This document shows, piece after piece, positions 1-61,959 of a stretch of DNA of 64,000 nucleotides. The translations under genes and the position numbers were made by a program. Numbering within the stretch: the first letter of the stretch is position 1; the number at the start of each line of letters is the position of its first letter. The notes below the pieces were generated by a model. It saw only the letters and a program-made list of their open reading frames with translations, did not search any database and had not been told where the DNA came from. This stretch comes from Micromonospora inyonensis (GTDB lineage Bacteria; Actinomycetota; Actinomycetes; Mycobacteriales; Micromonosporaceae): NCBI RefSeq assembly GCF_900091415.1, contig NZ_FMHU01000002.1, positions 2,976,001-3,040,000 on the forward strand, read 5' to 3'.

Positions 1-3000
1 ACCGGGTCGACACCTTCGACGCGGCCTTCTTCGGGGTCAGCCCCCGGGAGGCCGCGGCGATGGACCCGCAGCAGCGGCTGATGCTGGAGCTGAGCTGGGA
101 GGTAATGGAGGAGGCCCGGATCGTTCCCGCCACGGTACGGGACACCCGCACCGGGGTCTTCGTCGGCGCCATCTGGGACGACTACGCGACGCTGTCCTAC
201 CGGGGCGGCCCGGAGGCGGTCTCCCCGCACACGGTCACCGGGCTGCACCGCAGCATCCTCGCCAACCGGGTCTCGCACCACTTCGGCCTCACCGGGCCGA
301 GTATGACCGTCGACACCGGGCAGTCCTCGTCGTTGGTGTCCGTGCAGCTGGCCTGCGAGAGCCTGCGGCGCGGCGAGTCCAGCCTGGCCATCGCGGCCGG
401 GGTGAACCTGATCATGGCTCCGGAGAGCACCACCGGCATGGCCCGGACCGGAGCGCTCTCCCCCGACGGCCGCTGTCACACCTTCGACGCCCGCGCCAAC
501 GGCTACGTCCGGGGTGAGGGCGGCGCGGCCGTGCTGCTCAAGCCCCTGGCTCGGGCGCTGGCCGACGGCGACCGCGTGCACGCGGTCATCCTCGGCGGCG
601 CGGTCAACAACGACGGGGTTGCCGAGGGGCTCACGGTACCCAGCCGGGTGGCGCAGGAGGAGGTGCTGCGGCTGGCGTACGCCGATGCCGGCGTCGACCC
701 GCACGACGTGCAGTACGTCGAGCTGCACGGCACCGGCACCCGGGTCGGCGACCCGGTCGAGGCGGGCGCGCTGGGCCGGGTGCTCGGCGCGGGCCGCCCG
801 GCCGACGCGCCGCTGCTGGTCGGCTCGGTCAAGACCAACGTCGGTCACCTGGAGGGCGCGGCCGGCGTCGTCGGCCTACTCAAGGCGGTGCTCGCCCTGC
901 GTCACCGGCACCTGCCGGCCAGCCTGAACTTCACCACCCCCAACCCGGCCATCCCCCTGGACGACCTGCGGCTGCGGGTGCAGCAGCGGGCCGGCGACTG
1001 GCCCCGGCCGGACGCGCCCCTGCTCGCCGGGGTCTCCTCGTTCGGCATCGGTGGCACCAACTGCCACCTGGTGCTCGCCGCCGCCCCGGAGCAACCGGCC
1101 GGCAGGGAGCCGTCGGGAGGCGTGGCTGGTTGCAGGGGGCCCTTCCTACCGTCTGGTGATGAGGAGGGGGCCCCTGCAACCACCTGGCGCACCGCAACCA
1201 CCTGGCGCACCGCAACCACCGGCGCGGAACGGGCGACCGGGGCAGCGGGCGGGACGGCGCGCGAAGCGGCGACCGGGGCGGCGGGCGAGGTGACCGGGTG
1301 GCCGCTCTCCGCTCGCGGGGAGGCCGCCCTGCGCGACCAGGCCGCCAACCTGGCCCGGCACCTCGACGCCCACCCCGACCTCGACCCGGCCGTGGTCGCG
1401 CACAGCCTGGCCACCACGCGGACCCGGTTCGACCACCGGGCCGTGGTGGTCGCCGGGGACATCGTCGAGGCGCGGACGGCGCTGACCGCGCTGGCCCAGG
1501 GGCTACCCGACGGCGGGCTGGTCACCGGCACCCGCACCCCGGGGAAGGTGGTCTTCGCGTTCCCCGGGCAGGGGTCGCAGTGGGTCGGCATGGCGCTGGG
1601 GCTGCTCGACACCCACCCCGTGTTCACCGCCCAGCTGCACCGCTGCGCCGAGGCGCTCGCCCCGTACACCGACTGGAACCTGATCGACGTCCTGCGTGGT
1701 GAGCCGGGCACCCCGCCGCTGGACCGGGTGGACGTGCTCCAGCCGGCGCTCTGGGCAATGATCATCTCGCTGGCGGAGACCTGGCGGGCGCACGGCGTCG
1801 AGCCGGACGCGGTGATCGGCCACAGCCAGGGCGAGATCGCCGCCGCGTACGTCGCCGGAGCCCTCACCCTCGACGACTCGGCACGGCTCGTCGCCCGTCG
1901 GGCCCAGGCGATCACCGCGATCGCCGGCACCGGCGGCATGGTCTCCATCCCCCTCCCGCCGGACCAGGTCGACCTGACCCCGTGGGCCGGGCGGCTGCAC
2001 GTCGGCGCGCTGAACGGGCCGTACTCCACCGTGGTCTCCGGCGACCTGGACGCCCTCGACGAGATCACCGCCGCGCACGCGGAGCGGGGGATCACCTGCC
2101 GCCGGGTCAACATCGACTACGCCTCGCACACCCACCACGTGGAGCCGCTGCGCGAGCGATGGAACGAGATGCTCGGCGAGCTGCGGCCGACCGCCACGCG
2201 GATCCCGTTCTGGTCGACGGTGGCCGCCGGGCCGGTCGACGGCACCGCCCTGACCGCGGACTACTGGTACGGGAACCTGCGTAACCCGGTCCGCCTCGAC
2301 GAGACCGTCCGGGCGCTGGCGGCGGCCGGGCACAACCACTTCGTCGAGCCCAGCCCGCACCCGGTGCTGACCGTCGGCATCCAGGACAGCCTGGACGCGA
2401 GCCACGTCGCCGGCACCACCACCGGCACCCTCAAACGCGGTGACGGCGGCCCGCGCCGGCTGCTGCTCTCGTTGGCCACCGTGCACACCCGCACCGAACG
2501 GACGCCGGTCCTCGCCGCCGATCCGGAGCACGTCCCGGACGGCGCGGTCGACCTGCCCACGTACCCGTTCCAGCGCCAGGCGTACTGGATCGCCGCCGGG
2601 CCGGTCCCGACGGGGCCCGCGCCGGGCGGTGCACCGCACCCGGTCCGGGACGCGGAGCCCGTCCGGGACTCCCGGCCCGGGCTGACCGGCACGCTGGCCG
2701 AACGGCTCGCCCTGCTGCCCGCGCCCGAGCAGTCCCGGCTGACGCTCGACCTGGTCCGCAAGAACGCCGCGGCGGTGCTCGGCCATGCCTCCGACGCCGC
2801 GATCGGGGTCGACCTCTCCTTCCGGGACCTGGGCTTCGACTCGGTGCTCTCGCTGGAGCTGCGCAACCGGCTCGCCGCGGCCACCGGGCTGCGGCTCGCC
2901 TCGGGCCTGCTGTTCAACCACCCGACCCCGGCCGCCCTCGCCGGGCACCTGCGCGACCACCTGGTCGGCGGCGGTGTCGACCCGGCGGCCACCCGGGCGG

Positions 3001-6000
3001 ACGCGGACGCGGACGAGCCGATCGCGGTGGTGGCCATCGGCTGCCGCTACCCCGGCGACGTCCGCTCGTCGGAGGACCTGTGGCGGCTGGTCGCCGGGGG
3101 TGTCGACGCGATCGGCGAGTTACCCACCAACCGGGGCTGGGACCTCGAGGGGCTGTTCGACCCGGAGCCCGGCGTGCCCGGGAAGTCGTACGCCCGGCAC
3201 GGTGGCTTCCTGCACCGGGCCGACGAGTTCGACGAGGAGTTCTTCGGGATCAGTCCGCGCGAGGCCGCCGCCATGGACCCGCAGCAGCGGTTGCTGCTGG
3301 AGACCTCGTGGGAGGCGTTCGAGCGGGCCGGCATCGACCCGACCGCGCTGCGCGGCAGCCGCACCGGCGTGTTCATGGGGCTGATGTCCCAGGAGTACGG
3401 ACCACGCCTGTACGAGACGTCGGCCGGCTCCGACGGGTACCGGCTCACCGGCAGCACCGCCAGCGTCGCCTCCGGACGGATCTCGTACGTCTTCGGGTTC
3501 GAGGGCCCGGCGTTCACGGTGGACACCGCCTGCTCCTCGTCGCTGGTGGCGATCCACCTCGCGGTGCAGTCGCTGCGCCGGGGCGAGAGCGACCTGGCGG
3601 TCACGGGCGGAGCGTGCGTGATGTCCTCGCCCGGGATCTTCGTCGAGTTCAGCCGGCAGCGCGGTCTCGCGCCGGACGGGCGCTGCAAGGCGTTCGGGGC
3701 CGGGGCGGACGGCACCGGCTGGGCCGAGGGCGCCGGGGTGCTGCTGCTGGAGCGGCTCTCCGACGCCCGCCGCAACGGTCACCGGGTACTCGCGGTGATC
3801 CGGGGCAGCGCGATCAACTCCGACGGGGCCAGCAACGGGCTCACCGCCCCGAACGGCCCGTCCCAGGAACGGCTGATCTCCGACGCGCTGGCCGACGCCG
3901 GTCTCTCCCCCGCCGACGTGGACGCCGTCGAGGCGCACGGCACCGGCACCCAGCTCGGCGACCCGATCGAGGCCGGCGCGCTGCTCGCCACGTACGGGCA
4001 GGGCCGGCCGGCGGACCGGCCGCTGCGGCTGGGCTCGCTGAAGTCGAACATCGGGCACAGCCAGGCGGCGGCCGGTGTGGGTGGCGTGATCAAGATGATC
4101 GAGGCGCTCCGGCACGACCTGCTGCCGCCCACCCTGCACGCGGCCGAGCCGTCGCCGCACGTGGAGTGGTCGTCCGGCGCGGTCGCCCTGCTCACCGAGG
4201 CGGTGCCGTGGCCACGCGATGCGCGACCCCGCCGGGGCGCGGTCTCCTCGTTCGGCATCAGCGGCACCAACGCGCACGTGATCCTGGAGGAGGCCCCGGC
4301 CGACGCGGACGCCGCCCCGGCCGACGACGACGTCCCGCCGGTCATGGTGGGCGCGGTCGCCCTGCCACTGTCGGCGCGCGGCCCGGCCGCCCTGCGCGAC
4401 CAGGCCGCCAACCTGGCCCGGCACCTCGACGCCCACCCGGACCTCGACCCGGCCGTGGTCGCGCACACCCTGGCCACCACCCGGGCGCGGTTCGACCACC
4501 GCGCGGTCGTCGTCGCCGCCGACCCGGACGCCACCCGCGAGGCGCTCACCGCCCTCGCCGAGGGACGGTCCGCGCCGAACCTGGTCACCGGCACCCCGAC
4601 CGAGGGGAAGACCGTCTTCGTCTTCCCCGGGCAGGGGTCGCAGTGGGTCGGCATGGCGCTGGGGCTGCTCGACACCCACCCGGTGTTCACCGCCCAGCTG
4701 CACCGCTGCGCCGAGGCGCTCGCCCCGTACACCGACTGGAACCTGATCGACGTCCTGCGCGGTGAGCCGGACACCCCACCGCTGGACCGGGTGGACGTCA
4801 TCCAGCCCGTCCTCTGGGCCATGATGATCTCCCTGGCGGAGACCTGGCGGGCGCACGGCGTCGAGCCGGACGCGGTGATCGGCCACAGCCAGGGCGAGAT
4901 CGCCGCCGCGTACGTCGCCGGAGCGCTCACCCTCGACGACTCGGCCCGGGTCGTGGCGCGTCGGTCGCAGGCGATCACCGCGCTCGCCGGCACCGGGGGC
5001 ATGGTCTCCGTGCCGCTGCCGGTGGAGCAGGTCGACCTGGCCCCGTGGGACGGGCGGATCCACGTCGCGGCGATCAACGGGCCGCACTCCACGGTGGTGG
5101 CCGGCGAGGCCGCCGCCCTCGACGACCTGGTCGCGAGCTTCCAGGCCCGGGACGTCAACGCCCGTCGGATCGACGTCGACTACGCCTCGCACACCCCGTT
5201 CGTGGAGCCGATCCGGGAGCAGGTGCACGAGCTGCTCGGCAAGATCCGGCCCCGGGCGTCGCGGATCCCGTTCTGGTCCACGTACACCGGCGGCCTGCTG
5301 GACACCACCGAGCTGGGCACCGGGTACTGGTTCCAGAACCTGCGCAACACGGTCCGGTTCGCCGAGACCGTCCGGGGGCTGGCCGCCGCCGGGCACACCC
5401 ACTTCGTCGAGACCAGCCCGCACCCGGTGCTCACCATCGGCATCCAGGACACCCTGGACGCCGCCGACCACCCCGGTACCACCACCGGGACGCTGAAGCG
5501 CGGCGAGGGCACCGCCGCCCGGCTGCTGCTCTCGCTGGCCCACGTGCACACCCACACCGGGCACCGGCCCCGGCTGGTCGCCGACCCGGCGTACGTGCCG
5601 CGCGGCACGGTCGACCTGCCCACGTACCCGTTCCAGCCGCACCGGCACTGGCTCGCCGCGCCGAGCGGGGCGACTCCGGCCCGGGACGCCGGGCACCGGT
5701 TCCTCGAGGCCGAGATCGACCTGGCCGGCGACGCCGGGGTGCTGCTCTCCGGGCGGCTGTCCCGGCGTACGCATCCCTGGCTGGCCGACCACGCGGTACG
5801 CGACACCGTGCTGCTCCCCGGCACCGCCCTGGTCGACCTGGCGTCGTACGCCGCCGACCGGGCCGGCTGTGGCGTGGTCGACGACCTGGTCCTGGAGGCG
5901 CCACTGGTGCTGCCGGTCACCGGCGGGGTGGAGATCCAGGTGAGCGTCTCCCCCGGGGACGACCCGGAGCGGCGGACGCTGGCCGTCCACTCCCGACCCG

Positions 6001-61862: not shown

Positions 61863-61900
61863 CCGCGTCCCGTGGATCCGACGGTGGGCGTCGGGCCTGG

Positions 61901-61959
61901 GTGGTTGCAGGGGACCCTTCCTCGACAGAAAGCGGTAGGAAGGGGCCCCTGCAACCACC
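61901..61959 (-). repeat. Hairpin repeat element, copy 6
   Basis: GTGGTTGCAGGGGACCC on the left pairs with GGGGCCCCTGCAACCAC on the right. The loop on the minus strand reads TACCGCTTTCTGTCGAG, matching copies 2 and 5. Confidence 0.85.

What the first reader, a model, noticed from the sequence alone, without database searches (positions are those of the whole stretch)
1128..61959. Dispersed family of six hairpin elements with a conserved asymmetric loop
Copies at 1128-1184, 30659-30716, 33691-33744, 43941-44000, 47529-47584 and 61901-61959 share arms GGTGGTTGCAGGGGCCCC or GGTGGTAGCAGGGGTCCC. The loops, put in one orientation, agree on about TACCG(C/T)TTT(C/T)TG(T/A)CGAG in most copies. Conservation of the loop, which does not base-pair, means it is more than a terminator stem. 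The arms fall into two subtypes (TTGC with GGCCC; TAGC with GGTCCC), and copy 2 mixes them. Size, intergenic placement and a GTAG-like foot recall REP/RAYT elements, but no Y1 transposase is in this window. I do not know a published description of this family.
Basis: partly seen in the sequence, partly recalled or inferred. Interest (0 to 1): 0.8.

Follow-up and report, generated by a model that had tools for sequence, protein, structure and literature searches.

The report
Mobile-looking hairpins at stop codons
The six hairpins belong to a large family of about 54-letter DNA elements found across the soil bacterium Micromonospora; many lie directly behind the stop codon of a gene and differ between close relatives as if they still move, although the enzyme usually held responsible for such elements was not found in most of the genomes that are rich in them.

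Summary
All six copies are real. They share a 54-nt core (two self-palindromic halves around an 18-nt loop). The host genome holds 248 exact 15-mer half-sites (reversed-pattern control 0). This arm type is abundant in 3 of 151 sampled genus genomes, but is one subfamily: a family model matches 59 of 61 genus genomes, 22 at high copy. The long hairpin is supported by compensatory changes (72 cells against 33 expected). In other Micromonospora the TTAACGC part of the loop is better conserved than the arms.

New: at 23 loci outside the window's clade the loop-left end abuts a gene's stop codon at 17 (2.8% expected), the right end at 3; at 12 the spacing is identical (CTGA + 3 nt), mostly in best-scoring copies. 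At four sites the stop codon is also present in an empty orthologue. Close genomes differ in presence, orientation, completeness and arm sequence.

Architecture is REPIN-like, but the RAYT test fails: no Y1 transposase found in 18 of 22 high-copy genomes, no element at 37 Y1 loci examined. Best reading: mobile REPIN-like elements inserted next to stop codons by an unidentified enzyme, possibly acting as portable gene 3' ends.

The parts
1128..1184 (+). copy 1: core 1128-1181, loop orientation +, in frame inside a polyketide synthase gene (KS-AT linker by comparison with module 2)
   Evidence: RNA fold -46.1 kcal/mol, z -5.9
1176..1225 (.). 18-nt tandem array that contains the end of copy 1 (GCAACCACC)
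30657..30716 (-). copy 2: core 30660-30713; its loop-left end follows the TGA stop (30719-30717, minus strand) of the protease gene 30717-31946 with 3 nt between stop and core
   Evidence: protease domains; RNA fold z -3.3
33691..33747 (-). copy 3: core 33691-33744, 85 nt behind the stop of the aldehyde dehydrogenase gene 33830-35242; an orthologous copy in G132 and G137
   Evidence: RNA fold z -10.5
33754..33825 (.). 16/33-nt tandem array beside copy 3
43941..44000 (+). copy 4: core 43944-43997, 25 nt behind the stop of the methyltransferase (Methyltransf_4) gene 43199-43918 and upstream of the DUF3516 helicase gene; related elements with other arms at the same site in 14 of 65 comparable relatives
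   Evidence: RNA fold z -10.7
47528..47584 (+). copy 5: core 47528-47581, between divergent genes; no element found at the syntenic place in G132 and G137
   Evidence: RNA fold z -5.8
47588..47646 (.). 10-nt tandem array beside copy 5
61900..61959 (-). copy 6: core 61903-61956, between the 3' ends of convergent genes; syntenic place without element in G132 and G137
   Evidence: RNA fold z -7.7
61961..62025 (.). 13-nt tandem array (5 copies) beside copy 6

Best explanation
The six hairpins are members of a genus-wide population of miniature mobile elements of REPIN type: two REP-like palindromic halves in inverted orientation that fold as one ~18-bp hairpin with a conserved loop. The unit inserts with its loop-left end directly behind a short CTGA-like site, which in the best-preserved copies is the stop codon of a gene; it brings GGT and its own foot, leaves no visible target duplication, and so places a strong hairpin at the 3' end of the gene. 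Shown: copy number, long-hairpin covariation, loop conservation, oriented closeness to in-frame stop codons outside the window's clade (with one fixed spacing at 12 of 23 loci), stop codons present in empty orthologues, differences between close genomes, a half-element from a 31-nt deletion. Inferred: that the process is transposition through single-stranded DNA resembling IS200/IS605 and REP chemistry, that an enzyme not found here does it, and that the hairpins act as bidirectional terminators or mRNA 3'-end protectors, which would make the site harmless or useful.
For: 248 exact half-sites in the host, 0 in control. Family model R1: 59 of 61 genus genomes; 22 of 61 with 85-88 matches (88 candidates scored per genome; both strands of one palindrome can count), 39 of 61 with 0-45. 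Long hairpin: 72 compensatory cells against 32.8 +- 5.0 in shuffles, 0 of 500 as high; two-hairpin fold 39 against 37.3. Loop TTAACGC mean 1.83 bits against 1.56 for the arms, 86 copies outside the clade. Stop codons: 95 elements outside the clade in 23 loci (merged on either flank); best copy of each locus: left end abuts a coding stop (-8..+8) at 17, right at 3, left-right p 0.003; random non-coding places 2.8% per end; 12 at exactly -3, all CTGA (C precedes 64% of background TGA stops, p 0.0045). Filled and empty orthologues at four sites, with the stop codon in both. Host copies: a gene 3' end within 120 nt at 40 of 51 against 449 of 2100 random non-coding places.
Against: No enzyme found: Y1_Tnp not found at E <= 0.01 in 18 of 22 high-copy genomes and RVT_1 not at E <= 0.001 in 13 of 22. 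In the window's own clade the tight stop spacing is weak: 7 left and 1 right of 29 copies, then 0 left and 2 right of 24 further ones, so there only general closeness to gene 3' ends is firm. 15 of the 23 loci came in as best model hits, which may favour tidy copies (model columns 1-4 include flank); 11 of the 12 exact -3 cases are among them. Of the other 8 loci the best copy abuts on the left at 5 and on the right at 1, but only 1 at -3; at the aldehyde-dehydrogenase locus no member abuts on the left and 4 of 8 on the right. Gain or loss at empty sites is not proven, and a few nt beside the junctions also differ. Two of five G060/G021 sites are shared, which also fits slow turnover.
Confidence: 0.6

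Rival explanations
1. Selected 3'-end regulatory hairpins: bidirectional transcription terminators or mRNA-stabilising ends that arise and are replaced locally and are kept by selection; similarity comes from recombination or gene conversion among copies, not from transposition.
For: Position at stop codons, folding z-scores to -10.7, paired changes at orthologous copies, excess between convergent genes (20 of 79 against 16% of random non-coding places) and deficit between divergent ones (7 of 79 against 31%).
Against: No T-run behind the stem in the listed flanks; copy 1 lies in frame inside a gene; only 22 of 61 genus genomes hold many copies although all have gene ends; at one 3' end a close genome carries the element in the opposite orientation and about 23 nt further on.
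Confidence: 0.2
2. Ordinary REPINs driven by a RAYT (Y1 transposase) that was lost, acts from few lineages, or is too divergent to be found.
For: REPIN-like architecture; GTAG-like foot in the window's clade; a C-T step at the left flank recalls the CT cleavage sites of TnpAREP (PMC8266576, passages); the three members of the window's clade do have Y1 genes.
Against: Y1_Tnp not found at E <= 0.01 in 18 of 22 high-copy genomes while 15 of 39 low-copy genomes have it; no element found in 37 Y1 loci held, up to 1.5 kb each side, some cut by contig ends.
Confidence: 0.13
3. MITE of a terminal-inverted-repeat transposon.
For: Short, palindromic ends, high copy.
Against: No target duplication seen at the four filled/empty sites; conserved loop and orientation-specific placement are not MITE features (recalled).
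Confidence: 0.04
4. Retro-insertion of terminator-like RNA hairpins at mRNA 3' ends.
For: Position and orientation relative to transcription.
Against: Reverse transcriptase family RVT_1 not found at E <= 0.001 in 13 of 22 high-copy genomes.
Confidence: 0.03

Closest known systems
REPINs (REP doublets forming hairpins) of Pseudomonas and relatives
   Same: Two inverted REP-like halves forming one long hairpin with compensatory changes; the doublet as the repeated unit; singlets as decayed remnants; tandem arrays including flanks (PMC3116915, passages including the abstract's).
   Different: REPINs are tied to RAYTs and were described as randomly distributed in extragenic space with a spacer less conserved than the REPs. 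Here no Y1 found in most high-copy genomes, the left part of the loop better conserved than the arms outside the window's clade, and placement at stop codons.
GTAG-tagged REPs and TnpAREP (REPtrons)
   Same: GTAG-like tetranucleotide before a palindrome; recognition of one orientation only; CT next to the element (PMC8266576, passages).
   Different: Genus-wide foot here is GTAAG/GTTAG; no TnpAREP found. The main text of PMC3733652 on GTAG-tagged repeats holds no 'Micromonospora', 'Salinispora', 'actino' or 'Streptomyces' (word search only).
IS200/IS605 family and its non-autonomous derivatives
   Same: Hairpin ends, oriented insertion behind a short fixed sequence, no target duplication (recalled; guide-sequence model in passages).
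   Different: Own-genome Y1 loci carry no such hairpin within 1.5 kb and Y1 was not found in most high-copy genomes.
Intrinsic terminators without U-tract of actinobacteria
   Same: GC-rich stem directly behind stop codons (type recalled).
   Different: Fixed 54-nt length, conserved loop, dispersed as a sequence family, different between close genomes.

Membership tests
REPIN / REP | two inverted REP-like palindromes that fold as one hairpin | tested here: met
REPIN / REP | high copy number, mainly extragenic | tested here: met
   4 of 79 elements intragenic by my gene caller (copy 1 of the window is not among the 79)
REPIN / REP | GTAG-type tetranucleotide at the 5' foot | tested here: inconclusive
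   GGTAG or GGTTG in the window's clade, GTAAG/GTTAG elsewhere in the genus
REPIN / REP | associated RAYT (Y1) gene in the same genome, flanked by the repeats | tested here: not met
   Y1_Tnp not found in 18 of 22 high-copy genomes; no element found in 37 Y1 loci held
REPIN / REP | cleavage of the single-stranded element by a TnpAREP enzyme | not testable with these tools
   needs biochemistry
MITE of a TIR transposon | target-site duplication | tested here: not met
   none visible at four filled/empty sites
IS200/IS605 derivative | ends shared with an IS200/IS605 copy of the same genome | tested here: not met
   no half-site (seven G000 loci) or model hit (ten loci of G000, G132, G137) within 1.5 kb of their Y1 genes
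canonical intrinsic terminator | stem followed by a run of T | tested here: not met
   by reading the listed flanks, mostly ACC and no T-run
any Rfam RNA family | match at the curated score | tested here: not met
   only match in the window is ASpks at 3969-4043, not at a copy

The most novel reading that the evidence does not exclude
A RAYT-less class of REPIN-like miniature elements in Micromonospora whose unknown enzyme inserts them in one orientation at CTGA stop codons, so that they act as portable gene 3' ends (in some genes they supply the stop codon); the whole population of a genome can change arm type together, and high-copy and low-copy species occur within one genus.
Probability: 0.35. 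Interest if true: 0.82.

Novelty: new variant of a known kind. Interest (0 to 1): 0.63.

Why it matters
REPINs are thought to persist because a RAYT keeps them moving. A large, evidently dynamic population without a detectable Y1 enzyme in most high-copy carriers makes that dependence directly testable and points to another enzyme. Preferred placement at stop codons would be an unusual target choice and a natural source of new 3' ends for genes. The uneven copy number within one genus is a ready comparative system for finding the enzyme by gene-content correlation. Searches behind the statement that I found no published description: (open-licence PMC text only).

Tried and rejected
Own-genome Y1 transposases as the RAYT: rejected. 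Genes lying between two close elements as an autonomous partner: ten proteins examined, none a transposase by Pfam (MOSC, release factor, polynucleotide kinase-phosphatase, MerR, methyltransferase, GNAT, luciferase-like, three without a family). Two-hairpin (clover) fold as the conserved structure: not supported by covariation, though the left half alone still pairs in 84% of cells. Reverse transcriptase as driver: not needed. Strong left-end stop spacing in the window's own clade: suggested, not repeated in 24 further copies, so not claimed. My first count of independent sites (28 clusters, 18 left, 4 right) held several clusters from one locus; merged on either flank it became 23 loci, 17 left, 3 right, and these numbers are used. 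Exact junctions from the window's own copies: relatives at about 90% identity are too divergent between genes. Plasmid and phage collections: no match for the queries tried. The paper searches gave nothing on this family.
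Full report
Observation. They are copies of a 54-nt core, about GGTWGCAGGGGNCCCYTGNTACCGCTTTTTGTCGAGCAGGGGNCCCCTGCWACC, usually with GGT before and ACC behind it. In 1.6 Mb of this clade 44 full copies score 52-90 and six half or overlapping pieces -10 to 2; the best scores in 400 kb of Markov-shuffled and of reversed sequence are about -24 and -22. Every one of the six folds better than all of 200 shuffles. Copy 1 is inside a gene: it adds 19 in-frame codons, followed by tandem repeats, to a polyketide synthase behind its first KS domain; the second module has a much shorter linker there.

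Copy number and distribution. The host genome (6.92 Mb) holds 454 half-sites at up to one mismatch against 22 for the reversed pattern, and 248 exact ones against 0. The exact pattern is abundant in 3 of 151 genus genomes (G000 248, G132 315, G137 248); each of the other 148 has 0 or 1. That looked like a private family. But at the copy-4 site 65 of 80 named relatives could be compared, and 14 of them have a model match there, of the type GTAAGGAAGGGCCCC..TTAACGC..GGGGCCCTTCCTAAC. A strict pattern finds 20 such elements in 15 of 80 relative loci (1.44 Mb), with 0 hits in the reversed control. 54 of 63 listed copies, from Micromonospora and one Plantactinospora, align with gaps only at the ends of the alignment.

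Covariance model. Model R1, built on that alignment, matches 59 of 61 genus genomes. Copy number is uneven: 22 of 61 reach 85-88 matches (88 candidates were scored per genome, so this is a cap, and both strands of a palindrome can count), 39 of 61 have 0 to 45. In 150 genomes of the order 26 match; outside the family these are five genomes of one genus with 12-17 matches each and five others with 1-5, at much weaker E-values.

Structure. As one long hairpin (18 pairs) 87.9% of cells pair and 72 cells show changes on both sides, against 32.8 +- 5.0 in shuffles (0 of 500). The number of pairs with any such change (8) is not above shuffles (7.5; 251 of 500). The alternative of two separate hairpins shows no excess (39 cells against 37.3, 208 of 500). 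Sequences related by descent inflate such counts, as the tool warns. The loop does not vary freely: in 86 elements from other Micromonospora (95 found, 86 above the score cut) its TTAACGC part averages 1.83 bits against 1.56 for the arms, the whole loop 1.31; in the window's clade (44) the loop averages 1.21 against 1.62 for the arms, so there it is conserved but less than the arms.

Placement. A codon-usage gene caller written here was applied to the fetched blocks and loci. Of 79 elements 48 lie between co-directional genes, 20 between convergent, 7 between divergent and 4 inside genes; random non-coding places give 49%, 16% and 31% for the first three. Many of these 79 are orthologous. For the host alone, 40 of 51 copies have a gene 3' end facing them within 120 nt, against 449 of 2100 random non-coding places (p about 2e-17), and 25 of 51 against 220 of 2100 within 40 nt.

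Stop codons. The best model hit in each of 15 other genomes (L210-L224) showed a pattern: in 12 of 15 the in-frame TGA of a gene, three letters, then the core at its loop-left end (L211, L212 and L222 lie reversed). To count loci I scanned the held loci outside the window's clade: 95 elements, in 23 loci when merged on either flank. Taking the best copy of each locus, the left end abuts a coding stop (-8..+8) at 17 of 23, the right end at 3 of 23 (left against right p 0.003); random non-coding places give 2.8% per end. At 12 of 23 the TGA ends exactly 3 nt before the core, and C precedes it in all 12 (64% of background TGA stops; p 0.0045). Bias must be stated: 15 of the 23 loci came in as best model hits, and 11 of the 12 exact cases are among them; of the other 8 loci the best copy abuts on the left at 5 and on the right at 1, with one exact case; and at the aldehyde-dehydrogenase locus no copy abuts on the left and 4 of 8 on the right. 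At three loci or clusters the stop is TAA inside the element's own foot. In G001 and G017 the methyltransferase gene upstream of the helicase appears to read on into the element (my reading). In the window's clade tight spacing is not firm: 7 left and 1 right of 29 copies, then 0 left and 2 right of 24 others; copy 2 of the window is one of the clear cases.

Empty sites and turnover. Flanks of four sites were sought in nine genomes and aligned. At each, at least one genome lacks the element and the stop codon is present both with and without it, so the stop belongs to the gene. At the L211 site the empty allele of G073 has two convergent stop codons 4 nt apart; filled alleles carry the element between them. 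No target duplication is visible, but a few letters beside the junctions also differ, and I did not establish whether each case is a gain or a loss. At the L213 site G073 carries its element in the opposite orientation and about 23 nt further on. At the L219 site G073 and G141 (left flank 97% identical) have elements differing at 7 of 54 positions, including one T-A to G-C pair change. Between G060 and G021 (five sites in 400 kb each) two elements are shared, two are present in one genome only, and one is whole in G021 but reduced in G060 by a 31-nt deletion between direct repeats of its arms, which can explain half-elements. Copies 3 and 4 of the window have orthologous copies in G132 and G137; for copies 5 and 6 none was found there.

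Enzyme. The host has seven Y1_Tnp matches. In the three loci whose reading frames I listed (L031, L036, L037) a TnpB-like frame lies beside the Y1 frame (identity recalled). G132 and G137 have one and two. None of these ten loci has an element within 1.5 kb, and none was found in 27 Y1 loci from other genomes, some of them cut by contig ends and scanned except for their outer 200 nt. Of 22 high-copy genomes 18 have no Y1_Tnp at E <= 0.01 (one of the other four, G022, is below the curated cut-off), while 15 of 39 low-copy genomes have one or more. RVT_1 is not found at E <= 0.001 in 13 of 22 high-copy genomes, and is found in 14 of 39 low-copy ones. A Y1 enzyme too divergent for the Pfam model cannot be excluded.

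Comparison with the known. The anatomy is that of REPINs: PMC3116915 (passages) describes REP doublets as inverted repeats forming a hairpin with compensatory changes, linked to RAYTs and randomly distributed in extragenic space. PMC8266576 (passages) describes TnpAREP cleaving at CT dinucleotides beside the REP, with the GTAG motif crucial. What differs here is the missing Y1 enzyme, the conserved left part of the loop and the stop-codon placement. So it works like, but is not shown to be a member of, the REP/RAYT system.

Function. The most likely effect is on the 3' ends of transcripts: hairpins of -33 to -60 kcal/mol (six copies), often close behind stop codons. There is no T-run, so such a hairpin would be a terminator of the stem-only type or a shield against 3' exonucleases; neither was tested.

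Noticed in passing
window 1176-1225, 33754-33825, 47588-47646, 61961-62025: Short tandem arrays abut four of the six copies; 11 of 44 copies in the clade do, against 44 of 2000 random non-coding places. In copy 1 the repeat unit contains the element's end, as if slippage started at the hairpin.
   Followed up: partly
window 3969-4043: Rfam match ASpks (66 bits), antisense inside a PKS reading frame; perhaps only sequence conservation of the coding domain, not an RNA gene.
   Followed up: no
window 49670-49861: 83-nt tandem repeat, 2.3 copies.
   Followed up: no
L220 1505-1558 and 1582-1635: Two elements in opposite loop orientation directly behind one another.
   Followed up: no
L064 11053-11111 and L071 11035-11093: Elements with a palindromic loop (AGACGTCT); the L064 one is an almost perfect palindrome throughout.
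   Followed up: no
five genomes of genus g35, family f15 (G201, G214, G221, G233, G239): 12-17 weaker model matches each in another family of the order: a distant relative or a look-alike.
   Followed up: no
G013: 30 reverse-transcriptase matches in one genome of the genus, several with identical scores.
   Followed up: no
copy-4 site in L226-L251 and relatives: The methyltransferase gene upstream of the DUF3516 helicase seems to take its stop codon from the element in several species.
   Followed up: partly
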